DNA of 64,000 nt, taken from Marinobacter nanhaiticus D15-8W (GTDB lineage Bacteria; Pseudomonadota; Gammaproteobacteria; Pseudomonadales; Oleiphilaceae). The notes below the pieces were generated by a model. It did no database searches and was not told the DNA's origin. It saw only the letters and a list, made by a program, of their open reading frames with translations. The stretch lies in the NCBI RefSeq assembly GCF_036511935.1, contig NZ_AP028878.1, forward strand, positions 2,108,001-2,172,000. Reading direction: 5' to 3'. Position numbers and translations under genes: made by a program. Below, piece after piece: positions 42,294 through 53,806 of this stretch; within the stretch, counting starts at the first letter, position 1; the number at the start of each line of letters is the position of its first letter.

Positions 42294-43685
42294 ATGGCAG
42301 AGCATCACTACGACGTCGTCGTTATCGGCGCCGGTCCTTCCGGCGAGGGTGCGGCGATGAACGCGACAAAGCATGGCAAGCGTGTCGCTATCGTTGAGGA
42401 TAAACCCACCGTCGGCGGTAACTGCACCCACTGGGGAACCATCCCGTCCAAGGCGCTGCGTCACTCAGTCAAACAGATCATTACCTTCAACACCAACGTG
42501 ATGTTCCGGGACATTGGCGAGCCGCGCTGGTTTTCTTTCCCGCGCGTCCTGCAGAATGCCGAGAAAGTCATGGGCAAGCAGGTCAAGCTGCGCACACAAT
42601 TCTATGCCCGTAATCGGGTCGACCTGTTCAACGGCAGGGCCTATTTCCTCGACGAGCATCGTATTGAAGTGCGCGGTGGGAAAGGGGAGGAGATCCTCAA
42701 TGCCAAATCGGTGGTCATCGCTACGGGGTCACGCCCTTACCTTCCGCCCGATGTGAACTTCCGCCACCATCGCGTCTACAACAGTGACTCCATTCTCAAG
42801 CTCTCCCACACGCCGCGCACCCTGGTAATCTACGGCGCAGGGGTAATTGGCTGCGAATATGCGTCGATCTTCGCGGGACTCGGAGTCAAGGTGGACCTGA
42901 TCAATCCGGGCAGCCGCTTGCTGACCTTCCTCGACGATGAAATCTCCGATGCGTTGAGTTATCACCTGCGCAATAATGGCGTTCTGGTGCGGCACAACGA
43001 GCAATATGAATCGGTCGAGGGTGATGACCATGGCGTCATCCTGACGCTGCAGTCAGGCAAGAAAATTCGCGCAGATGCGTTCCTGTGGTGTAACGGTCGA
43101 ACCGGCAACACCGACAAACTGGGTTTGGAGAATATCGGCCTGGAGCCCAATACCCGTGGTCAGCTGTCGGTGGACGAGCATTACCGTACCGCGATTCCGC
43201 ATATTTATGCCGCCGGAGATGTGATTGGCTGGCCCAGCCTGGCGAGCGCGGCGTATGACCAGGGACGCTCGGTATCCTCCGACCTGATTGGGGACGAGCA
43301 CTTCCGCTTCGTTTCGGACGTGCCCACCGGCATCTACACCATTCCTGAAATCAGTTCCGTGGGTAAGACCGAGCGGGAACTGACGGAGGCGAAGGTTCCG
43401 TATGAAGTCGGGCAGGCGTTCTTCAAGGATCTGGCACGCGCTCAGATCACTGGTGAAGCCGTGGGTATGCTGAAGATTCTGTTCCACCGCGAGAGTCGGG
43501 AGATCCTGGGTATCCACTGTTTCGGTGACCAAGCGGCAGAGATCGTACATATTGGTCAGGCAATCATGAATCAGGAAGGTGAGGCCAACTCCCTCAACTA
43601 CTTTATCAATACCACTTTCAACTATCCGACCATGGCGGAAGCCTACCGGGTGGCTGCACTGAACGGTTTGAATCGTATCTTCTGA
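42294..43685 (+). CDS. sthA: Soluble pyridine nucleotide transhydrogenase SthA
   Basis: 463 residues of the flavoprotein disulfide reductase fold: FAD site [20 protein letters not shown](P) site [16 protein letters not shown], and second FAD block [10 protein letters not shown]. The redox disulfide is incomplete: Cys44 is followed by T49 (NCTHWGT) where reductases carry the second Cys. This is the hallmark of SthA, which exchanges hydride between NADH and NADPH. It lies downstream of the nqr operon, as in Pseudomonas. Confidence 0.95.
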
Positions 43686-43795: not shown

Positions 43796-43897
43796 GGCAG
43801 CCTTGCAGGCTGCTCCGAAGCTGAAGCGTCGGCTACATTTTCTAGTTAACTCGAGTATGTAGCAGACGCTTTAGCTTCTGAGGCGCTGAAGGCGCCC
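43796..43897. repeat. Three-hairpin intergenic repeat element, copy 1
   Basis: In order: a GCAGCC/GGCTGC hairpin (43797-43813), a 22-bp near-perfect inverted repeat GAAGCTGAAGCGTCGGCTAC... (43817-43838) with ...GTAGCAGACGCTTTAGCTTC (43857-43878), and a GGCGC/GCGCC hairpin (43882-43896). A second copy lies at 52799-52900 in opposite orientation. Both lie downstream of terminators in gene-free DNA. It resembles a REP/BIME-type palindromic unit. Confidence 0.85.
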
Positions 43898-43977
43898 ATG
43901 GACTTTGCCGTCACAGGTGGCACCTTCCTCTCACGCTAATTCACGAAGACTCTTTTCCTCATGGTCTGTATACACGA

Positions 43978-44769
43978 TCAAGTGGTCCCCGCCAGGGTTT
44001 CCGGATCTTTCTCCACGCGCCTGGGCAGCCGGGAAATAGCATTAGCGGCGCGATTCTCAAAGTACATCAGCGTGCTGGTGGGGAAGTCTGTAATGATGCT
44101 GTCGATACCCATTTTTTCCAGATCCAGCATGTCCTGGATACGGTTAACCGTCCAGACGGAGACGTGCAGGCCTTCTTTGTGTGCGGCCTCGACCACCGCC
44201 GTAGAGCATAGCCTTGCGTTCAGGCAGAGATAGTCGCAACCCAGGCGCTTGGCGTTCTTGACCGGGTTGGGGAAGCGCTTGTCGAAGACCAGACCGGTAC
44301 GGATATTGTGGTCACGCCGTTTGACCTCCCGCAGGAACCAGGTATTGGACGATGTCAGCGCGGCGCGGTCGTACCAGTGATTCTTCTGGATCAGCTCCGC
44401 CAGGCGATTGCACAGCACGTTCATGCGCTGGCGTTCGTCGGTTTTAACCTCGAATTGCATGTGAGCAAAGTCGGGGCAGGTATCGAGCACCTGCCTCAGC
44501 GTGGGGATGCTGCAGGGCTGGTGCCAGGGCACCGTGTTGTGCCTGGCGTCCAGTTGTGACAGGGCTTCGGTAGTTAATTCGCCCACCTTGCCTTCAACGC
44601 CGGTGGTCCGGTCTGTCGTCGTATCGTGGATAACCACCGGCTCGCCGTTGGCAGACAGCAGGATATCCATCTCGAAATGCCGGATACCATGCTTGTAAGC
44701 GTGTTTGAAGCCTGGGAGTGTGTTTTCCGGCGCTTCTCCCTTTGCACCGCGGTGACCGTAGATAATCAT
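43978..44769 (-). CDS. Glycerophosphodiester phosphodiesterase
   Basis: 263 residues, a complete GDPD domain: GHRGAKGEAPENT (catalytic His, metal Glu), HFEMDILLSANGEPVVIHDTT (second His, Asp), QFEVKTDE, then VWTVNRIQDMLDLEKMGIDSIITDFP. No signal peptide, so it probably works in the cytoplasm like UgpQ, splitting glycerophosphodiesters to glycerol-3-phosphate and an alcohol. ATG 44769 was chosen because family members start directly at M-I-I-Y-GHRG; the upstream in-frame extension is unrelated. Confidence 0.92.
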   Translation of the reverse strand: MIIYGHRGAKGEAPENTLPGFKHAYKHGIRHFEMDILLSANGEPVVIHDTTTDRTTGVEGKVGELTTEALSQLDARHNTVPWHQPCSIPTLRQVLDTCPDFAHMQFEVKTDERQRMNVLCNRLAELIQKNHWYDRAALTSSNTWFLREVKRRDHNIRTGLVFDKRFPNPVKNAKRLGCDYLCLNARLCSTAVVEAAHKEGLHVSVWTVNRIQDMLDLEKMGIDSIITDFPTSTLMYFENRAANAISRLPRRVEKDPETLAGTT

Positions 44770-44861
44770 TGTGCGAGAGTCTCTCAAGCTGTTGACGCAC
44801 AGACATAAACCGAAATCGCCAATACTTGGCATCCCGGGGTTACTGCATATGGAGGTTGGAA

Positions 44862-45968
44862 TCAGCGACGGTAAAGCTCGCGCCGCTTCTTCCATAATTC
44901 ATGGCATAGGGCTACATCGTCGAGAAAGGCTGGGAGCTCTTCCATGGTCAGCGCCTGGGGGCCGTCCACCAGTGCTTTCTCCGGTCTGGGGTGAAAATCC
45001 ACCAGGACCATGTTTGCGCCCGCGACAATCCCTTGGGCCGTAGCGTGCATCACATCCGGAATACCATCCGGCGAGCTGTCACGGCTGCCCACGGAATGGG
45101 AAGGGTCAATGCATACGGGCATGCGGGTCAGACGCTTTACGGCCGGTACGTGGGCGAAGTCCACCATGTTGCGGTGCGGCTGTCCTGCTTCGGTCTTCAT
45201 TCCGCGCAAACAGAAAATCACATTGGCGTTGCCCTCGCTCGCCAGGTATTCCGCAGCGTTGAGCGACTCGTTCAGGGTAATGCCAAAGCCGCGCTTAAGT
45301 AGCACTGGATATTCTTTCTGACGACCGATGGCCTTGAGCAGCTCGAAATTCTGCGTATTGCGGGTACCCACCTGAAGCATGACACCAGTCGGTCGGCCGA
45401 GTTGTTCCAGGCAGGTATCGATTTCCTCGATATGGCTCTCGTGGGTGATTTCCATGGCAATCACCCGGATGCCGTACTTGCCGGCCAGTTCAAACACGTA
45501 GGGCAGGCAGGCCTCGCCGTGGCCCTGGAACGAGTAGGGGTTGGTCCGCGGCTTATAGGCGCCCATGCGGGTGCAGGTCTGGCCATGGTCGGCCAGTGAC
45601 TTCATCATGATTTCAACGTGTTCCGGCGTGTCGACGGCGCACAGACCGGCAAAGACGTTCAGGTTATCCTGGTCGAAATGCACATCGTTATAGCTGAAGC
45701 CGGTTTGACGTCGGTCATCCCGGTGGCGTCCAAGAATGCGGTATTCATCGGAAATCCGGATCGCGCGCTCGACCGCTGGCAGGGCCTCGATTTCTTCCTT
45801 GTTGAGGGATTTGGTGTCCCCGAGCAAATAGAGCTCCGTCAGCTTTTGCTGCGCACCCTGGACCTCATGAATCCTTACCGAGACACCCGGCAGGTTTTCC
45901 AGGAAGGAGAGGGTGTCGCGATAGGCGTCGCTATCCAACGGCGTGTCAGGGTAAAGGATGGCAAGCAT
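44862..45968 (-). CDS. 3-deoxy-7-phosphoheptulonate (DAHP) synthase, type I-beta-like
   Basis: 368 residues. An N-terminal ferredoxin-like domain (1-90) is followed by a TIM-barrel catalytic domain with VLLKRGFGITLNE, NVIFCLRGMKT, RMPVCIDPSHSVGSRD and ANMVLVDFHPRPE. These fit the KDO8P/DAHP synthase family, which condenses PEP and erythrose-4-phosphate to open the shikimate pathway. ATG 45968 has GAAGGAGA just upstream. The same frame runs further into the terB gene but that part is not related. Confidence 0.87.
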   Translation of the reverse strand: MLAILYPDTPLDSDAYRDTLSFLENLPGVSVRIHEVQGAQQKLTELYLLGDTKSLNKEEIEALPAVERAIRISDEYRILGRHRDDRRQTGFSYNDVHFDQDNLNVFAGLCAVDTPEHVEIMMKSLADHGQTCTRMGAYKPRTNPYSFQGHGEACLPYVFELAGKYGIRVIAMEITHESHIEEIDTCLEQLGRPTGVMLQVGTRNTQNFELLKAIGRQKEYPVLLKRGFGITLNESLNAAEYLASEGNANVIFCLRGMKTEAGQPHRNMVDFAHVPAVKRLTRMPVCIDPSHSVGSRDSSPDGIPDVMHATAQGIVAGANMVLVDFHPRPEKALVDGPQALTMEELPAFLDDVALCHELWKKRRELYRR

Positions 45969-45978
45969 GGCGTCTCCT

Positions 45979-46434
45979 TCAGGACGACATCGCCTTCTCG
46001 GCCCGATGTCGGCATTCCATATATTCGCGGTGGTTGAGGTGCAGCAGGTCGGCGATACGCCGGACCAGGTGTTCCTCATACTTGTCGATACGGCCGTCGG
46101 CGAAGGCCACGCGCCAGATGCTTTCCAGAATTTCGGCCTTTCCCGCCTGGTCGAGCCGGGCGTTGAGCTGCTCGGTGAACTCATAGAGCGACGTTGCATC
46201 TTCGGCATGGGCGCGGGCGTCCGCCAGGATCGCGGTGGCTTCCTCCCGAGTGATTTCCTGGGAGCGGATCGCGCAATCGACGATCATGCTCATTTCCACA
46301 TCGTCTTCGTACTGGTCCACCCGTGCGAGCTGGACCATCAGGGCGGTTGCTGCAACGGCCAGTTGTTTCGGATCATTTTTCTCCGGTACGCCTTCAGCGT
46401 CACCGGAGAACAGTTTCTTCAAGGCTTCGATCAT
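45979..46434 (-). CDS. TerB-family protein
   Basis: 151 residues, an all-helical TerB domain: LAVAATALMVQLARVDQYEDDVEMSMIVD and ILESIWRVAFADGRIDKYEEHLVRRIADLLHL, with Asp/Glu groups that bind metal in the family. No membrane segment. TerB-like proteins are linked to metal or envelope stress, but single-domain copies like this have no settled role. It sits between talB and the DAHP synthase gene, 10 bases from the latter and 2 bases after talB on the same strand, so all three may be co-transcribed. Confidence 0.85.
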   Translation of the reverse strand: MIEALKKLFSGDAEGVPEKNDPKQLAVAATALMVQLARVDQYEDDVEMSMIVDCAIRSQEITREEATAILADARAHAEDATSLYEFTEQLNARLDQAGKAEILESIWRVAFADGRIDKYEEHLVRRIADLLHLNHREYMECRHRAEKAMSS

Positions 46435-46436
46435 GC

Positions 46437-47399
46437 TCAGGCTGCTCGGGCTAACTGCCGGACCCTCTGTTCCAGTTCGATCTGGTCGGCAGCGAATTTA
46501 CGGATACCCTCGGCCAGTTTCTCCGTGGCCATGGCGTCTTCGTTCATCAACCAGCGGAAGTCGTTTTCCTGCAGGCTGATACGTGATTCCACCTTACCTG
46601 TTGTTTCCGGTGACAGGATACGGGGCAGTTTGCCTTCGTCATTCTGCAGGGTTTCCAGCAGGGCCGGGCTGATAGTGAGGCGATCGCAACCGGCCAATTG
46701 CTCGATTTCACCAGCGTTGCGGAAGCTTGCGCCCATGACGACGGTATCGTAACCGTTGCCCTTGAAGTAGTTGTAGATCCGGGTAACCGAGAGTACGCCG
46801 GGGTCTTCGTGAGGCGCGTAGGCTGTCTTTCCGGTAGCTTTCAGGTTCCAGTCCAGTATACGCCCGACGAACGGCGAGATCAGGAAGGCGCCTGCTTCTG
46901 CACAGGCGGCGGCCTGGGCAAATGAGAAGAGTAGGGTCAGGTTGCAGCGTATGCCTTCTTTCTCGAGGATCTCGGCGGCGCGGATGCCTTCCCAAGTGGA
47001 AGCGATTTTGATCAGCACCCGGTTGGTGGGTACGCCGATACTGTCGTAAAGCTCCACCAGGCGCCGCGCCTTGGTCACAGTGCCTTCGGTATCGAAAGAC
47101 AGGCGCGCATCCACTTCGGTGGACACCACACCGGGGATCAGTTCCAGGATCTGTTGGCCAGCCAGCACCCCAAGATAATCGGTGGCGATGCCCAGTTGAT
47201 CAGCTTCTGAACCGTGTTGGCTCTGCGCGTAGTTAATGGCGGCGTCGAGCATTGGGCGGTATGCAGGCAGATCGGCAGCTTTGAGCAGCAGTGACGGGTT
47301 TGTGGTCGCATCGACCGGACGCCACTGTTTTATGGCTTCCAGGTCACCGGTATCGGCGACCACCGTGGTCATGGCTTTGAGCTGATCGAGTTTACTCAT
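46437..47399 (-). CDS. tal: Transaldolase
   Basis: 320 residues of the TalB type: [32 protein letters not shown] and [21 protein letters not shown], the last with the Schiff-base Lys, then [30 protein letters not shown]. It transfers dihydroxyacetone between sugar phosphates in the pentose phosphate pathway, producing erythrose-4-phosphate, a substrate for DAHP synthase encoded downstream. ATG 47399 matches the family start and has AGGACG nine bases before. The upstream in-frame extension to 47513 is not part of the family. Confidence 0.95.
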
Positions 47400-47589
47400 G
47401 GGTACAAATCGTCCTGATTGTAGTTGCGCGGGCACAGCAGGCGCTGCGTCCTTTCGGTAAGGCAAGGAACCTTGAATTAAACCTACAATAGCGATCTGCC
47501 AGCAGCGGAACAAGAGGCGGGGTGGCCTGTTAAGCGCCTGTCACAAGCATCTGGCGCTGGGTGAGAAGTCGATCCTTCAGCCGCGTCCC

Positions 47590-48624
47590 TTATGCGCTCG
47601 CCAGGAGCGGGGTTGTTTCGGGGTGGTCTTCGGGCACCTTCGCCATAGCCTGCTCGATGACCTCGACGCCAGATCCCGGGCGGTGAGCGTTCTCGCTGAT
47701 ATGGCGACGGAACTGGCGTCCGCCCTTGCAGCCATGGAACAGGCCCATAACATGGCGGCTGATATGGCTCAGGTAGACGCCACGGTCTAGCTCTGACTGT
47801 ATGTAGGGCAGCATGGCGCGCAGGACATCGTGACGGCTCTGCGCGATGGAGGTCTCGCCATAGAGCTCGGCGTCCACTTGGGCGAGCATCCAGGGATTCT
47901 GGTAAGCCTCGCGGCCGATCATCACGCCGTCTACGTGCTCAAGGTGGCTACGGCATTCTCCGAGAGTCTTGATGCCGCCGTTGATGATGATTTCCAGATG
48001 GGGATAGCGCCGCTTCAGGTCGTAGACCCAATCGTACTTCAACGGCGGTATATCACGGTTTTCCTTCGGGCTGAGGCCTTCGAGGACGGCAATCCGGGCG
48101 TGGACTATAAACGTGGTGCATCCGGCTGCGGCGACCGTCTCGATGAACTCGCAAAGCTGATCAAAGGATTCCCGGCCATTGATACCGATACGGTGCTTGA
48201 CGGTGACCGGTAGTTCCGTGGCCGCGCGCATGGCGGCGACGCCTTCCGCAACGGTTTTCGGATGCTCCATCAGGCAGGCGCCGATCATGTTGTTCTGTAC
48301 CCGGTCGCTGGGGCAGCCGACGTTCAGGTTGACCTCGTCGAAGCCGTTGTCCTCGGCCAGGCGCGCACAGGTAGCCAGTTCGGAGGCGTTGCTTCCGCCC
48401 AGTTGCAGGGCCAGCGGGTACTCGGCTTCATGATGGCGCAGGAAACGCTGGGTATCGCCGTGAATCAGTGCTCCGGTGGTGACCATCTCGGTATATAGCA
48501 GGGCGCGCCGGGATAGCAGGCGTGCGAAATAACGGTACGCTGAGGTGGTCCAATCCATCATCGGTGCCACGGAGAAGCGCCGATTGAGTGAACTGGAGGT
48601 TGTAGCGGTCGTCGTCGGAGTCAT
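47590..48624 (-). CDS. dusA: tRNA-dihydrouridine(20/20a) synthase DusA
   Basis: 344 residues: FMN-binding TIM barrel start RRFSVAPMMDWTTSAYRYFARLLS, and catalytic Cys104 in NVGCPSDRVQ. Also VKHRIGING, HARIAVLEGLSPKENRDIPPL (the DusA-specific extension) and INGGIKTL. It reduces uridines 20/20a in the tRNA D loop using NADPH. Confidence 0.95.
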   Translation of the reverse strand: MTPTTTATTSSSLNRRFSVAPMMDWTTSAYRYFARLLSRRALLYTEMVTTGALIHGDTQRFLRHHEAEYPLALQLGGSNASELATCARLAEDNGFDEVNLNVGCPSDRVQNNMIGACLMEHPKTVAEGVAAMRAATELPVTVKHRIGINGRESFDQLCEFIETVAAAGCTTFIVHARIAVLEGLSPKENRDIPPLKYDWVYDLKRRYPHLEIIINGGIKTLGECRSHLEHVDGVMIGREAYQNPWMLAQVDAELYGETSIAQSRHDVLRAMLPYIQSELDRGVYLSHISRHVMGLFHGCKGGRQFRRHISENAHRPGSGVEVIEQAMAKVPEDHPETTPLLASA

Positions 48625-48838
48625 CTAAACGCCTGTGTTTTTGCCCTGATATAACGAGACGGGTTATCGATGAGATTGGGCGAGGGATTATAACGTGTTG
48701 TCAGATGAATAAAAATTGAGCCAACCTCCCGCCCAACGAACCAGCTTAATTCAGATAGAGCTGGTAAACTGCCATTTTTCAGCGGGTTGCGAATGGCGAC
48801 TTCGGCCCGGTCGGGTTTCGGCGAAAGGAGTAGAGTCG

Positions 48839-49753
48839 GTGGATGTACTGATACAGGCCCTGGTGCCGGTTTTCGGCTTGATCCTGCTGGGTCAGTTCCT
48901 GCGCCGCATGCAGTTCCCTGGAGATGGCTTCTGGCCCATGGCCGAGCGCTTTACCTACTACGTGTTGTTCCCACCGATGCTGCTCTATAAGTTGGGCAGC
49001 GCCCAGATTCCTTCCTCGGCCTATGGCGATGTTGCGCTGATCGTCATCGGCATGGGGCTGACGATGACGGTGTTGCTCGCCGTCCTGCAAGTGGCGATGC
49101 GCTGGCCGGGTGCGGTATTCAGTTCCGTTTACCAGGGCGCGATACGCTTCAATACGTTTGTCGGCCTGGCGGCTGCTGGTTTGCTTATGGGTGACGATGG
49201 TCTCTCTCTGTTTGCCGTGGCCGTGGCGATCAACGTGCCGATGCTCAACCTGCTCTGTATCGTGATGTTTGCGATTGTCGTTGGGCAGGGCCCGATAAGG
49301 CTGGGGCCGACTTTCAAGGCCATTGCCACCAACCCGTTGATTATTGGTTCCGTGTCGGGCGCCGTGTGGGGTTATATCGGCATCGGCTTTCACCCGATCA
49401 TGGCGCGCTTCCTGGAGCCTCTCTCAGATATGGCGTTGCCGCTGGGGCTGCTGACGGTTGGAGCCGGGCTGCAGCTCAAAGGATTACGTAGCGCATCGGG
49501 CCCATTCCTGGTAGCGACATCTCTGAAATTGCTGGCATTTCCGTTTATCGCAGCTGGCCTCGCATGGCTGGTAGGGGTGGAAGGGCTCTTGTTGCAGGTG
49601 GCTGTCCTACTCGCTGCGCTTCCGACCGCATCGTCAGCTTACATCCTGGCGCGCCAACTGGGTGGTGACGCGCCATTGATGGCGGGCATCATCAGCGGCC
49701 AGACTTTGCTGGCCATCGTCACGATGCCCTTAATGCTGAGCTTGCTCGGGTAG
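48839..49753 (+). CDS. AEC-family transporter (auxin efflux carrier type)
   Basis: 304 residues from GTG 48839, preceded by AAGGAG at 8-9 bases. Ten transmembrane helices in two halves, with VLIQALVPVFGLILLGQFLRR at the start and a family-typical GLLTVGAGLQLKGLR and PTASSAYILARQLGGDA near the end. AEC proteins export organic or amino acids; the substrate is unknown. Its 3' end overlaps the convergent znuA gene by 24 bases. Confidence 0.88.
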   Translation: MDVLIQALVPVFGLILLGQFLRRMQFPGDGFWPMAERFTYYVLFPPMLLYKLGSAQIPSSAYGDVALIVIGMGLTMTVLLAVLQVAMRWPGAVFSSVYQGAIRFNTFVGLAAAGLLMGDDGLSLFAVAVAINVPMLNLLCIVMFAIVVGQGPIRLGPTFKAIATNPLIIGSVSGAVWGYIGIGFHPIMARFLEPLSDMALPLGLLTVGAGLQLKGLRSASGPFLVATSLKLLAFPFIAAGLAWLVGVEGLLLQVAVLLAALPTASSAYILARQLGGDAPLMAGIISGQTLLAIVTMPLMLSLLG

Positions 49754-50692
49754 ACAGGTCAGGGCGGCGTCGGCCAGCGACTGTTGGAATTTCACGTAGC
49801 CGTCGGGCGTTTCCGGAATCTCCGAGGCCAGCGGGTCCCACGTGCTAATAGTCAGGCCGACGTCTTCTGTGAGGCTTTGCCACCAGTCGCGGTTGAACTG
49901 CGGCTCGGTCAGCAGGCACGGGTGATTCGCACCGCGCAGCTTTTGCTGAATCGCATTGATGTGCCTCGCGCCGGGCGTCTGCTCCGGACTGGGAGTCAGT
50001 GCGCCGGCGAGGTGTATGCCGTAGTGTTCGGCAAAGCGGCCGAAGGCATCGTGGTAGGTGAAGATGTCGATGCCTTCCAGTCGCGCCAGGCTCGGGCGCA
50101 GTTGCTCATCCTGGGCGTGCAACGCATGCTCCAGCTGCTTCAGGCGGCGTTCGATAACGTCATGTTGGTTGGGTGCCAGCTTTGCCAGCCGGTCACCAAT
50201 GGTGTGCGTCATCAGTAGGGCCAGCGCGGGATCCAGCCATACGTGAGGGTCGACGCCATCGTGATGGTGGCCGTCGCCATGGTCGTGGCCTGGGTGCTCC
50301 TCATGACCAACTTCTTCAGCGTGGGCATGTTCGTGTTCGTGCTCATGAGCTATCTGAGCCTCTTCCGTGGGCATCAGCGATTGGGTGCGGGGTGCCAGTT
50401 CGGGGTTTTCCAGCAGTCGCTGCATGAAGGTTTCCATGGATGGACCAACCCAGAGGATCAGGTCGGCCTCGGCAAGGGCGCGGCGGTCCGAGGGGCGTAA
50501 CTGGTAGGTATGCGGACTGGCGCCAGCGGGGATGAGCGTCGTGATTTGGGTGTCCTCCGGTGCAATGGCCCGGGCCAGCAAGGACAGCGGTTTGATGGAC
50601 GTGACAATGCGCAATGGCTCATCTGCAGCAGAGAGGGGCGCGACGGCAATCAGGCAGGCAGCCGCGATGAACGGCAAAAAACGGTTTTGCAT
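49730..50692 (-). CDS. znuA: Zinc ABC transporter substrate-binding protein ZnuA
   Basis: 320 residues with a signal peptide (about 1-22). Zinc ligands are His61 in GASPHTYQL and His150 in DPHVW; a His-rich loop (116-144, HEHEHEHAH... DHGDGHHHD) is typical of ZnuA. The gene delivers zinc to an inner-membrane permease in the periplasm; znuB and znuC are not in this window. It is preceded by a Zur box (listed separately). Confidence 0.95.
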   Translation of the reverse strand: MQNRFLPFIAAACLIAVAPLSAADEPLRIVTSIKPLSLLARAIAPEDTQITTLIPAGASPHTYQLRPSDRRALAEADLILWVGPSMETFMQRLLENPELAPRTQSLMPTEEAQIAHEHEHEHAHAEEVGHEEHPGHDHGDGHHHDGVDPHVWLDPALALLMTHTIGDRLAKLAPNQHDVIERRLKQLEHALHAQDEQLRPSLARLEGIDIFTYHDAFGRFAEHYGIHLAGALTPSPEQTPGARHINAIQQKLRGANHPCLLTEPQFNRDWWQSLTEDVGLTISTWDPLASEIPETPDGYVKFQQSLADAALTCLPEQAQH

Positions 50693-50717
50693 GATAGGGT
50701 TCCGACTTGAATTTTTC

Positions 50718-50740
50718 GAAATGTTATAATGTAACAGCTA
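50718..50740. promoter_or_regulatory. Zur box upstream of znuA
   Basis: The first half GAAATGTTATA is identical to the E. coli Zur consensus, and the core TGTTA-N5-TAACA (50722-50736) is a perfect inverted repeat. A minus-strand -10-like TATAAC (50723-50728) lies inside it, so zinc-dependent repression of znuA is predicted. Confidence 0.8.
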
Positions 50741-50891
50741 AAATGTAAACGAGTTACGCGGGGCGCGGATCTACAGGTGCCTCCCATTTCATGCGAACAC
50801 TATTTCATAACGCTATAATGCGCGCTTCGAATTCACCAAGCCGGCACGCCGTTGTTCCAGTGGTGTGCCGTTCGTTCACAGGGATCCATGC

Positions 50892-52376
50892 ATGACCGTT
50901 CGTACCCGTATTGCGCCATCGCCTACCGGTGACCCTCACGTCGGCACCGCTTATGTCGCGCTTTTCAATCTGTGCTTTGCCCGACAGCACGGCGGCCAGT
51001 TTATTCTCCGTATCGAGGATACTGACCAGGCCCGCAGCACCGATGAATCGGAGCGGGATATCCTCAACGCGTTGCGCTGGCTGGGGCTGGAATGGGACGA
51101 GGGTCCGGACGTCGGCGGCCCCTACGGTCCCTATCGCCAGTCCGAACGCAAGAACGATTACCGGGCCTATGCCGAAGAGCTGGTGGAAAAAGGCCACGCC
51201 TTCTACTGCTTCCGCACGCCGGAAGAGCTTGAGCAGATCCGGGAAGAGCGCAAGGCCCACGGTCTGAATCCCGGCATCAAGGGCGACCTGGAATTGCCTG
51301 CGGATGAGGTGAAGCGTCGCCTCGAAGCCGGCGAGGCCCACGTTATCCGCATGAAAGTGCCGGACGAAGGCGTCTGCGTGATCGATGACATGCTGCGCGG
51401 TAAGGTCGAAATCGACTGGCAGCAGGTGGATTGCCAGATCCTGCTGAAATCGGATGGTATGCCCACCTATCACCTGGCCAATGTGGTGGACGATCACCTG
51501 ATGGGCATTACCCACGTGCTTCGCGGTGAAGAGTGGATCAATTCCGCGCCCAAGCACCAGTTGCTCTACAAATACTTCGGCTGGGACATGCCGGTGCTGT
51601 GCCATCTGCCGCTGCTGCGCAATCCGGACAAGAGTAAGCTGTCCAAGCGCAAGAACCCCACCAGCATCAATTTCTATGAGCGTATGGGCTTTGTGCCCGA
51701 GGCAGTTCTCAACTACCTGGGACGGATGGGCTGGTCCATGCCGGACGGGCGGGAGAAGTTCACCCTGCAGGAAATGATCGATAACTTCGACATCCAGCGT
51801 GTTTCCCTCGGTGGTCCCGTATTCGACGTGGAGAAACTGCGCTGGCTGAATGGCCTGTGGTTGCGTGAAGATCTGGACGACCAGGCGTTTATCGAGCGCC
51901 TGCAGCAGTGGTGGTTCAACCGCGAGTCCCTGGAAGCGCTCGTGCCCCATATTCGCGGCAGGGCGGAAGTCTTCAGTGACGTAGCGCCGATGGTAAGCTT
52001 CATGTTTTCCGGCATGCTGAACCTCAAGCCTGAGGATTTCAGCCATAACAAACTGGAGGAGGGCGATGTGAAGCGCGTCCTGCAGTTTGCACTGTGGACG
52101 CTGGAAGCCGAGCGTCACTGGACCAAGGACAACATCTTCGCGGATGTGAAGGGGCTGGCAAAAGCCATGGGCTTGAAGATGGGTGATTTCATGTTCCCCA
52201 TCTTTGTCGCGATCGCGGGAACACCCAACTCCTGGTCGGTGATGGACTCCATGGCGTTGCTGGGCCCGGACATGACCCGTTCGCGCCTGCGCCATGCGCT
52301 CCAGGTACTCGGTGGTTTCTCCAAGAAAGAGACCAAGCGCGTGGAAAAGGAGTACGCCGCGCTGGTCGCGGAGTAG
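50892..52376 (+). CDS. gltX: Glutamyl-tRNA synthetase
   Basis: 494 residues. The HIGH-type motif reads DPHVGTAY, and the KMSKS-type motif SKLSKRK. Other class I synthetase features include IEDTDQARS and [15 protein letters not shown]. It charges tRNA-Glu with glutamate; two tRNAs, one for glutamate, follow directly. ATG 50892 matches the [13 protein letters not shown] start of the family. An in-frame extension to 50865 is not part of it. Confidence 0.96.
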
Positions 52377-52390
52377 GCAATTTCATGTAA

Positions 52391-52436
52391 ATGCCGTCAA
52401 TGCCTTAAAAAAGTTCGAGGAAAGGGTTGACGGCAT
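52391..52436. repeat. 10-bp inverted repeat overlapping the tRNA promoter
   Basis: ATGCCGTCAA (52391-52400) and TTGACGGCAT (52427-52436) are exact inverse complements with 26 bases between. The right arm contains the -35 box of the tRNA promoter. It is not followed by a T run, so it is not a typical terminator. Confidence 0.7.
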
Positions 52437-52455
52437 AGGGGGGCATCACTAATAT
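52427..52455 (+). promoter_or_regulatory. Predicted promoter of the tRNA-Ala/tRNA-Glu operon
   Basis: TTGACG (52427-52432) and TAATAT (52450-52455) are separated by 17 bases, and the C-rich stretch after the -10 box (CGCCTCCG) is typical of stringently controlled stable-RNA promoters. Confidence 0.65.
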
Positions 52456-52469
52456 ACGCCTCCGTTGAC

Positions 52470-52545
52470 GGGGCCATAGCTCAGCTGGGAGAGCGCAACA
52501 CTGGCAGTGTTGAGGTCAGCGGTTCGATCCCGCTTGGCTCCACCA
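52470..52545 (+). tRNA. tRNA-Ala (anticodon GGC)
   Basis: A full cloverleaf: acceptor GGGGCCA/TGGCTCC, anticodon stem CAACA/TGTTG with loop CTGGCAG (anticodon GGC), T arm with GGTTCGATCC, and an encoded CCA end. Confidence 0.95.
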
Positions 52546-52553
52546 ATTTTCTA

Positions 52554-52629
52554 GTCCCCTTCGTCTAGTGGCCTAGGACTCCGCCCTTTCACGGCGGCAA
52601 CAGGGGTTCGAACCCCCTAGGGGACGCCA
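52554..52629 (+). tRNA. tRNA-Glu (anticodon UUC)
   Basis: A full cloverleaf: acceptor GTCCCCT/AGGGGAC, anticodon stem CCGCC/GGCGG with loop CTTTCAC (anticodon UUC), T arm GGGGTTCGAACCCC, and an encoded CCA. It lies eight bases after tRNA-Ala. Confidence 0.95.
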
Positions 52630-52703
52630 CTTTGGAGAGTTGTTCGAAAGACAGCTTTCCCGTTCCGAAACCGGTTTAGTCCACCGGTTATCGGAAATAA
52701 AGA

Positions 52704-52729
52704 AACCGCCCGTTTGTGGCGGTTTTTTT
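52704..52729 (+). terminator. Terminator of the tRNA operon
   Basis: AACCGCC (52704-52710) pairs with GGCGGTT (52718-52724), followed by a T run to 52729. Confidence 0.88.
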
Positions 52730-52798
52730 ATGCCTGGAATTTGGTTCTGCGCGGATTTGAGGCGAGCGGGGAGCGTATGGAAGGGGCTTGGGAATTGG

Positions 52799-52900
52799 GG
52801 CACCTTCGGTGCCTCAGAAGCTGAAGCGTCTGCTACATGCTCGAGTTGGCTGGTGAAATGTAGCCGACGCTTTAGCTTCGGAGCAGCCTGAGGGGCTGCC
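52799..52900. repeat. Three-hairpin intergenic repeat element, copy 2 (inverted)
   Basis: The reverse complement of this stretch aligns over its whole length with copy 1 at 43796-43897. In plus-strand order it holds a GGCAC/GTGCC hairpin (52799-52813), then a 22-bp inverted repeat (52817-52838 with 52858-52879) and a GCAGCC/GGCTGC hairpin (52883-52899). The terminal hairpin changed from GGCGC/GCGCC in copy 1 to GGCAC/GTGCC here, keeping base pairing. Confidence 0.85.
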
Positions 52901-52954: not shown

Positions 52955-53806
52955 CTACCGAATCGCCAACGCGCCTTTACCCACGCCCTCAAAGGCCTTC
53001 ACCCGGATCTCATCGTCGCTATGGCTGCGTTTACAGGCATCGGCCAGGTGAGCTGCAATCAACTCGACGGTAGTGTCCGTTTCCATCAGGTAGACGCGGT
53101 TGGCGGACAGGGTAAGGCTGAATTCACCCTGGTTGGCTTCGTAGGTGAAGGATACGTAGTTGATCTCGTCCTCGACGAAACGGGCGCTGATATCTTCCTC
53201 GGTACCGATGTAGATATCTTGCCAGCGACGTGCCCATTCCCGCTCCAATTGCTGATCCCGGGCGTGGTTGCGCTGGATCTGGATGCGTGAACGGTGGCCG
53301 TGGGCAATGCGCTGACAATTGCCGAGATGCTTCTTCAGCCCATGCACGTAGTGGTAGTAGGGGCCGTCTATCTCTTCCTCCCGCAGGTGGACTTCGATAC
53401 CGATGACGTTACCTGGTAGTACGGCGCGTAGCTCGTCCTGCAACAGAGCAGAAACGGCGGAAGGAAGAACCTCTCGGCCGCCCACCAGCAGCACGGCCTC
53501 CACCGGCGAACTATGGGTGATCACGCTGCCGTCGGACAGGGGGCATTCCAGTTCGACGCGATCACCGTGCTCGCGCACCTGCAGCCCCGCTTGATCCCGA
53601 GGTACGACCAACCTGTGGTCGACCCGTTCGTCGATGACGCGCTTTATGGTGCGTTTGACCGAACCGAAGTCGAAGACCATACCTTGCTCGTCCAGTTCGC
53701 CCGCGAGCATGACGTCGACGATCCAGCTTTCACCCACGAGACCACGATGGTGGTCCAGGTAGGCGAAATCAATAACGGTGAGGTTGTCGACGAAAAGGTG
53801 ATTCAT
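52955..53806 (-). CDS. Divergent 6-carboxytetrahydropterin synthase (QueD/PTPS) family protein
   Basis: 283 residues. The first part (1-75) carries GMVFDFGSVKRTIKRVIDERVDHRLVV, matching the DFG...lDH...L block of PTPS proteins, but the usual HGH is replaced by VGESWIVDV. The second part has CQRIAHGHRSRIQIQRN, matching the C...HGH block. It looks like two T-fold modules with the active-site parts shared, rather than a normal 120-residue QueD. It may not act in queuosine or pterin synthesis. It is convergent to the tRNA operon. Confidence 0.75.
   Translation of the reverse strand: MNHLFVDNLTVIDFAYLDHHRGLVGESWIVDVMLAGELDEQGMVFDFGSVKRTIKRVIDERVDHRLVVPRDQAGLQVREHGDRVELECPLSDGSVITHSSPVEAVLLVGGREVLPSAVSALLQDELRAVLPGNVIGIEVHLREEEIDGPYYHYVHGLKKHLGNCQRIAHGHRSRIQIQRNHARDQQLEREWARRWQDIYIGTEEDISARFVEDEINYVSFTYEANQGEFSLTLSANRVYLMETDTTVELIAAHLADACKRSHSDDEIRVKAFEGVGKGALAIR

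What the first reader, a model, noticed from the sequence alone, without database searches (positions are those of the whole stretch)
43796..52900. A three-hairpin intergenic element in two inverted copies with compensatory stem changes
The stretches 43796-43897 and 52799-52900 align as reverse complements over about 102 bases. Each has a central 22-bp inverted repeat and a small hairpin at each end. The terminal stem differs (GGCGC/GCGCC against GGCAC/GTGCC) while pairing is kept, so structure rather than sequence seems selected. It is not one of the palindromic families I can name, and no transposase is nearby. It could be a REP/BIME unit, a MITE, or a structured RNA or protein-binding site.
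Basis: partly seen in the sequence, partly recalled or inferred. Interest (0 to 1): 0.7.

Follow-up and report, generated by a model that had tools for sequence, protein, structure and literature searches.

The report
Paired REP repeats with cognate transposase
The two matching three-hairpin sequences are copies of a small repeat family (REP/BIME elements), found so far only in one bacterial genus, that most likely spreads with the help of a single-strand transposase encoded elsewhere in the same genome; this is a new example of a known kind of selfish DNA.

Summary
The two 102-base stretches are inverted copies of one element. At least 50 near-full-length copies and 275 half-units occur in the genome, against 0 for the reversed pattern. 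The central "22-bp inverted repeat" is two inverted REP units, each GTAG plus a 7-bp hairpin with a TTYA loop, followed outwards by a second GC hairpin. Covariation supports the separate REP hairpins (0/500 shuffles reach it) but not the long central hairpin (399/500), which carries two mismatches in 56 of 56 aligned doublets. A RAYT gene (NCBIfam REP_Tyr_transpos, 118.5 bits, cut-off 80) lies about 629 kb away inside arrays of the element. Four of the six held genus genomes, this one included, have this RAYT, and all four genes are flanked by the repeats. These genomes hold 95-275 REPs; the two without hold 4 and 32. None was found in the genomes searched outside the genus (0 of 32; 0 of 388; samples overlap). 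Verdict: a BIME/REPtron, a new member of a known kind. Side finding: an IS481-like element and its MITEs sit in the REP tetraloop at 32 of 34 examined sites.

The parts
43796..43897 (+). Copy 1: whole element (tail-to-tail dimer, GTAG ends inside; C-type REP left, A-type REP right), between a pyridine nucleotide-disulphide oxidoreductase gene (42294-43685 +) and a GDPD gene (43978-44895 -), convergent
43797..43813 (+). Copy 1 outer hairpin of the C-type REP (GCAGCC / GGCTGC)
43813..43836 (-). Copy 1 C-type REP (GTAGCCGACGCTTCAGCTTCGGAG)
43837..43858 (+). Copy 1 spacer (22 nt); contains AACTCGAG with a CT dinucleotide 9 nt before the A-type GTAG
43859..43882 (+). Copy 1 A-type REP (GTAGCAGACGCTTTAGCTTCTGAG)
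43882..43896 (+). Copy 1 outer hairpin of the A-type REP (GGCGC / GCGCC)
52799..52900 (-). Copy 2: whole element, reverse orientation, between a two-tRNA cluster (52470-52626 +) with a terminator-like hairpin and a PTPS-like gene (52955-53806 -), convergent
52799..52813 (-). Copy 2 outer hairpin of the A-type REP (GGCAC / GTGCC)
52813..52836 (-). Copy 2 A-type REP (GTAGCAGACGCTTCAGCTTCTGAG)
52837..52859 (-). Copy 2 spacer (23 nt)
52860..52883 (+). Copy 2 C-type REP (GTAGCCGACGCTTTAGCTTCGGAG)
52883..52899 (+). Copy 2 outer hairpin of the C-type REP (GCAGCC / GGCTGC)

Best explanation
Both stretches are BIME-type doublets of a REP family seen only in this genus. Each doublet has two inverted REPs of different type, A and C. 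Each REP is a GTAG tetranucleotide, a 7-bp hairpin with a TTYA loop, and a second, outward GC hairpin. The REPs face each other with GTAG inside (tail-to-tail), 21-24 nt apart. SHOWN: the anatomy, copy number, intergenic placement of the copies examined, restriction to the genus among the genomes searched, linkage to a RAYT gene, and covariation of the separate hairpins. INFERRED: when the DNA is single-stranded (for instance on the lagging-strand template) the RAYT binds the REP hairpin through GTAG, cuts at a nearby CT (the best candidate lies 9 nt before GTAG, in AACTCGAG) and so copies or moves the doublet into other intergenic sites. The element is thus a non-autonomous passenger of a chromosomal, single-copy RAYT. 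Any host role (3' mRNA end, protein binding) would be secondary.
For: At least 50 near-full-length copies in the genome (not every candidate was scored). REP pattern 133+142 against 0+0 for the reversed pattern. A RAYT of 162 aa with HUH (MPDHLHLLL) and Tyr (ARYIILNPVRAG) motifs (motif names recalled); NF047646 REP_Tyr_transpos 118.5 bits, cut-off 80; match to TnpA-REP 4er8 at 5.3e-9. The gene lies between REP arrays, and 4 of 4 genus orthologues are REP-flanked. REP counts are 275, 128, 95 and 171 with this RAYT, against 4 and 32 without. No REP in 32 other family/order genomes or in 388 genomes of the order outside the genus (the samples overlap). Single-REP hairpin: 92.3% paired, covariation 0.300 against 0.131, 0/500 shuffles; doublets 0.073 against 0.043, 0/500. 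Of the 30 best-matching loci, 3 repeat arrays already counted; the other 27 are all intergenic: 16 convergent, 10 tandem, 1 divergent. No REP at either orthologous window site in 5 of 5 congeners. No constant-length duplication abuts the unit. Published REPs have GTAG, CT cleavage and BIME pairs (PMC8266576, passages); tail-to-tail dimers with GTAG inside and heterodimers are described (PMC3733652, passages).
Against: No movement was observed, and no exact empty site with both junctions could be aligned because the congeners' intergenic DNA has diverged. The RAYT/REP correlation rests on six genomes, and G003 (32 REPs) has only a weak, different Y1 match (E 1.2e-4, 32% identity). GTAG lies inside the doublet, whereas GTAG-outside dimers prevail in most families (PMC3733652). 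The second hairpin has no role in the known model. The C-type stem keeps one unpaired position in 56 of 56 aligned doublets, though REPs of G004 often pair there; a conserved bulge is also known in E. coli REPs, so this is not decisive.
Confidence: 0.87

Rival explanations
1. The doublet acts as one long central hairpin or cruciform, and that is what selection keeps, as in the REPIN model.
For: The long hairpin is in the minimum-energy fold of all four strands. In Pseudomonas REPINs the doublet is proposed as the unit and compensatory changes across it are reported (PMC3116915, passages). The 102-base unit is conserved as a whole in at least 50 copies.
Against: On 56 doublets the long stem shows no covariation above shuffles (0.027 against 0.029, 399/500) and has two pairs broken in 56 of 56. 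Those positions pair inside each REP instead: C-G in 55 of 56 in the C-type REP, A-U or G-U in 56 of 56 in the A-type.
Confidence: 0.15
2. It is a MITE of a DDE-type insertion sequence, moved through terminal inverted repeats with a target duplication.
For: Short, many copies, inverted outer hairpins, intergenic.
Against: The two ends are different hairpins (GGCGCC against GCAGCC types), not terminal inverted repeats of each other. Of 27 flank pairs, 19 have no abutting direct repeat, 3 have 2 nt and 5 have 3 nt; the five are CAT or ATG and all lie in copies with shared longer flanks, and partner shuffles give 1.2 at 3 nt. The linked enzyme is a Y1-type RAYT. The genome's own DDE-linked MITE family looks quite different.
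Confidence: 0.03
3. It is a structured RNA element or transcription terminator acting at gene ends.
For: 16 of 27 sites lie between convergent genes, and the fold is very stable. A consensus scan finds one terminator-like match inside each window copy (43819-43834; 52845-52868), close to the shuffle expectation for the regions (0.5 and 1.1).
Against: At gathering thresholds no Rfam family matched in the window apart from two tRNAs. Each window copy lies beyond a GC hairpin with a T run visible in the sequence; the scan lists the one before copy 2 but not the one before copy 1. Arrays of alternating orientation and RAYT linkage are not expected of an RNA gene. Congeners lack it at the same sites. 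A secondary effect on mRNA 3' ends is not excluded.
Confidence: 0.08

Closest known systems
GTAG-type REP / BIME families and REPtrons (E. coli, Stenotrophomonas, Marinomonas)
   Same: GTAG before a short hairpin, inverted pairs and arrays, mostly intergenic, hundreds of copies, RAYT flanked by the same repeats (PMC8266576 and PMC3733652, passages).
   Different: Sequence found only in this genus among the genomes searched. Each REP carries a second outward hairpin. 53 of 58 tail-to-tail doublets pair type C with type A. GTAG lies inside the doublet, which is the rarer arrangement but described.
REPINs of Pseudomonas fluorescens SBW25
   Same: REP doublets organised as inverted repeats and linked to RAYTs (PMC3116915, passages).
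   Different: REPINs are reported to show compensatory changes across the doublet. Here the across-doublet stem does not covary and has two mismatches in 56 of 56. Whether doublets here are better conserved than singlets was not tested.
REP-associated tyrosine transposase (RAYT / TnpA-REP)
   Same: NF047646 over cut-off, Y1_Tnp domain, match to 4er8.
   Different: 162 aa; the 80 named relatives kept have 36-47% identity, and 0 of 80 of those loci carry this REP motif.
REP-targeting insertion sequences (IS1397, ISKpn1, IS621, IS481 of SBW25)
   Same: Insertion inside REPs (PMC1525189 and PMC11708052, passages). This comparison concerns the side finding.
   Different: Here an IS481-like element plus its MITEs occupy the exact tetraloop at 32 of 34 examined sites, 28 of them in C-type REPs.

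Membership tests
REP / BIME | Short palindromic unit preceded by a conserved tetranucleotide, usually GTAG | tested here: met
   In 186 sampled REPs each GTAG letter is kept in 99-100% (A and C types) or 89-100% (G type) (the sampling pattern includes GTAG with up to 3 mismatches, so this is partly built in). Hairpin covariation.
REP / BIME | High copy number (tens to thousands) | tested here: met
   275 matches at up to 2 mismatches against 0 for the reversed pattern.
REP / BIME | Extragenic location | tested here: met
   27 of 27 distinct sites outside ORFs of 120 aa or more; these are the 30 best-matching loci less 3 from arrays already counted, not all copies.
REP / BIME | Inverted pairs and tandem arrays of alternating orientation | tested here: met
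   58 tail-to-tail and 36 head-to-head pairs in fetched loci; arrays.
REPtron (REP plus cognate RAYT) | RAYT gene flanked by the cognate REPs | tested here: met
   4 of 4 genus orthologues.
REPtron (REP plus cognate RAYT) | RAYT binds and cuts the single-stranded REP at a dinucleotide such as CT | not testable with these tools
   Only a candidate: CT 9 nt before GTAG in 61% of 186 sampled REPs.
RAYT (NF047646) | Score over the curated cut-off | tested here: met
   118.5 bits against 80. HUH and Tyr motifs read in the sequence, Tyr region aligned to 4er8.
REPIN | Doublet pairs across its two REPs with compensatory changes | tested here: not met
   87.1% of cells pair, but no covariation above shuffles and two mismatches in 56 of 56.
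DDE-type MITE | Terminal inverted repeats and constant-length target duplication | tested here: not met
   The ends differ; no constant-length duplication in 27 flank pairs.
Rfam RNA families | Match over gathering score | tested here: not met
   Only two tRNAs in the whole window.

The most novel reading that the evidence does not exclude
A nest of parasites that reads DNA shape. The RAYT spreads REP doublets, and an IS481-like DDE transposase (and its MITEs) in turn recognises the folded C-type REP hairpin and inserts exactly in its TTYA tetraloop, duplicating the loop. If recognition depends on the extruded hairpin and not on sequence alone, it would be a DDE transposase guided by a hairpin loop in the chromosome, and its insertions would be a record of where REP hairpins extrude in vivo.
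Probability: 0.2. Interest if true: 0.6.

Novelty: new member of a known kind. Interest (0 to 1): 0.36.

Why it matters
It adds a complete REP-plus-RAYT system in a genus with six held genomes, where repeat number and presence of the transposase track each other; that makes a small natural series for testing whether RAYTs drive REP spread. The three covarying REP types (C-G, A-U, G-C), joined mostly as C-A heterodimers, offer a clean test of what a RAYT reads. The tetraloop-targeting IS481-like element gives an independent probe of whether REP hairpins form in cells.

Tried and rejected
Rfam search for a known RNA: nothing but tRNAs at gathering thresholds. The other five Y1 transposase matches of the genome (L031-L034, L036) were checked as possible partners: no flanking half-unit within the fetched 1.5 kb, so only the L035 gene is proposed as cognate. 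Named RAYT relatives from the GTDB genome set (best 80 of 577 confirmed were kept) were scanned for the motif: 0 of 80, so they give no wider family. Exact empty sites in congeners could not be aligned. I first took the pair at 461520/462454 for a doublet split by an insertion. One search shows a 253-aa ORF between them, so that is more likely a gene between two REPs; the insertion there is the small MITE at 461325-461464.

Sampling limits. One search scored only part of its candidates, so 50 copies is a lower bound. One search lists only the first 100 of 275 places; the 72 strings are distinct strings copied from the truncated listings. The pattern leaves columns 6, 9 and 21 free, so the 6:21 covariation is not imposed, while changes elsewhere are limited to two mismatches. 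One search aligned 56 of the 58 doublets (two C-G doublets of L130 left out; two rows of L035, read as G-C because the A-type REP is decayed, turned round). The 80 named loci were left out. The reversed-pattern control had single hits in a few other genomes (G002, G023, G034). The IS analysis covers 34 sites found through end motifs with at most one mismatch, not every copy; full-length IS copies with other ends were not all placed.
Full report
OBSERVATION. The two stretches are as described. 43796-43897 and the reverse complement of 52799-52900 align over 102 bases (86%, E 4.1e-28). All four strands fold into three hairpins with z-scores between -5.8 and -7.2, and no shuffle in 200 folds as well. 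In the window the half-unit pattern occurs four times at up to three mismatches, two per copy and all exact, against 0.00 expected from 100 shuffles.

COPY NUMBER. The 102-base query finds 50 rows that cover 83 to 102 bases of the element, both window copies included; most of the other 40 of the 90 rows are the same places matched on the opposite strand. Only part of the candidates were scored, so 50 is a lower bound. The half-unit GTAGCNGANGCTTYAGCTTCNGAG occurs 133+142 times at up to two mismatches, against 0 for the reversed pattern. Several places are arrays of two to four units.

ANATOMY. Each half is a REP: GTAG, then C-NGANGC-TTYA-GCTTCN-G, a 7-bp hairpin with a four-base loop, followed outwards by a second GC hairpin. 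The free pair N-N' is C-G, A-U or G-C, which defines three types. In the fetched loci, 53 of 58 tail-to-tail doublets join a C-type and an A-type REP, 21-24 nt apart; one is T with A, two are G with C and two C with G. Of 36 head-to-head pairs, 16 are A-C, 11 C-G and 9 C-C; many of these lie inside arrays. The doublet of the finding is therefore a tail-to-tail heterodimer, with GTAG inside, in the terms of PMC3733652 (passages).

WHICH STRUCTURE IS KEPT. On 72 distinct REP strings the local hairpin is 92.3% paired, with covariation 0.300 against 0.131 in shuffles (0/500) and 4 of 7 pairs changed on both sides; slid versions reach 31-42% paired. On 56 doublets the four local hairpins are 90.7% paired, covariation 0.073 against 0.043 (0/500); two of the five measures, pairs changed on both sides (81/500) and further pair types (329/500), do not stand out, and the compensatory changes there lie in an outer stem, not in the REP stems. 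The long central hairpin is 87.1% paired, covariation 0.027 against 0.029 (399/500), with two pairs broken in 56 of 56. These two positions pair within each REP. Cautions: related copies inflate such tests, many pairs never vary, and the C-type stem keeps one unpaired position in 56 of 56 doublets, though many REPs of G004 pair there. A conserved mismatch bulge needed for activity is reported for E. coli REPs (PMC8266576, passages). The outer stems keep pairing in 89.6% and 96.4% of cells.

TRANSPOSASE. The genome has six Y1_Tnp matches. One, 162 aa, minus strand, C1:2789468-2789956 (L035:1351-1839), lies inside arrays of the element. It scores 118.5 bits for NF047646 REP_Tyr_transpos (cut-off 80), matches Pfam Y1_Tnp and TnpA-REP 4er8 (5.3e-9). 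Two of the others scanned fall just under the NF047646 cut-off (78 and 74.8 bits), and none of the five has a half-unit in its fetched flanks. The gene is about 629 kb from copy 2.

DISTRIBUTION. In the six held genus genomes the REP counts are 275, 128, 95 and 171 where this RAYT is present (65% identity in the three congeners), and 4 and 32 where it is not; the genome with 32 has only a weak match to another Y1 gene (E 1.2e-4). That is complete separation, but with six genomes. All four RAYTs are REP-flanked. Outside the genus: 0 of 32 genomes (up to 2 mismatches) and 0 of 388 sampled from the order (up to 1 mismatch); the two samples overlap. At the two orthologous sites 0 of 5 congeners have the element, although the anchor genes match at 90-97%. 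Exact junctions could not be aligned.

PLACEMENT. Of the 30 best-matching loci, 3 come from arrays already counted; the other 27 are all intergenic by a simple ORF test: 16 convergent, 10 tandem, 1 divergent. In the window, copy 1 lies between an oxidoreductase gene and a GDPD gene, and copy 2 between a tRNA pair and a PTPS-like gene. Each lies beyond a GC hairpin with a T run visible in the sequence; the consensus scan lists the one at copy 2, not the one at copy 1, and finds a weak terminator-like match inside each copy at about chance level. No constant-length duplication abuts the 102-base unit: of 27 flank pairs, 19 show none, 3 show 2 nt and 5 show 3 nt, against 23.0, 2.7 and 1.2 in partner shuffles; the five all belong to a subset with shared longer flanks.

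MECHANISM. Shown: the parts above. Inferred: mobilisation in trans by the RAYT from single-stranded DNA, with GTAG as guide and CT as cleavage site. A CT lies 9 nt before GTAG in 61% of 186 sampled REPs and in about 91% of the 77 A-type ones; shared descent alone could give this. E. coli TnpA-REP cuts at CT beside the REP and needs GTAG, while two other TnpA-REPs tolerate GTAG changes to some degree (PMC8266576, passages). The role of the outer hairpin is unknown; it may be part of the moved unit or a by-product of array assembly.

SECOND LAYER. A family with ends GAGGGTGTTGCAAAA, from 140-bp MITEs to elements of about 1.5-1.6 kb with an IS481-like transposase (PF13011, rve), sits in these REPs. 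Of 34 sites examined, 30 have both ends in REP halves, 2 one end and 2 none; 25 of the 30 have identical four-base flanks, each the TTYA loop, and 5 do not. Of the 32 REP sites, 28 are C-type, 2 G-type, 1 A-type and 1 mixed, although most doublets hold one C and one A. The transposase occurs in 11 near-identical copies in this genome and in 0 of 5 congeners at E 1e-60. In P. fluorescens SBW25 an IS481 element also sits beside REPs and was seen to insert into one; its authors conclude that the four-base flank there was carried along with the element and was not a duplication made at the new site (PMC11708052, passages). Here both loop variants, TTCA and TTTA, recur on both sides of single insertions, which favours duplication. 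REP-targeting by five other IS families is in PMC1525189 (passages), so this too is a known kind. Preference for one REP type could be read from sequence alone; hairpin recognition is a conjecture.

NOVELTY. PMC2817692, PMC3686654 and PMC6006769 were seen only as listings with the start of the abstract. I score it as a new member of a known kind.

Noticed in passing
G000:C1, e.g. L164:26-165, L168:416-555, L203:108-1632 (outside the window): An IS481-like insertion sequence and its MITEs (140 bp to 1.6 kb) occupy the tetraloop of REPs at 32 of 34 examined sites, 28 of them C-type, with TTYA on both sides in 25 of the 30 sites that have both ends in a REP.
   Followed up: partly
L035:868-2428 (outside the window): Regular array of alternating A, C, G-type REPs and decayed REPs around the RAYT gene, a unit of about 220 bp repeated on both sides.
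   Followed up: partly
L130 (congener G004): REPs beside this RAYT carry a compensated stem (GAAAC/GTTTC instead of GAAGC/GCTTC), a hint that RAYT and REP stem may change together.
   Followed up: no
L002, L003, L004, L006, L008, L015, L017, L029: A subset of doublets shares longer flanks (roughly CATTCCCGGAAT on one side and ATGGTCTTACGACT on the other), so one subfamily has a longer repeated unit or arose by larger duplications.
   Followed up: no
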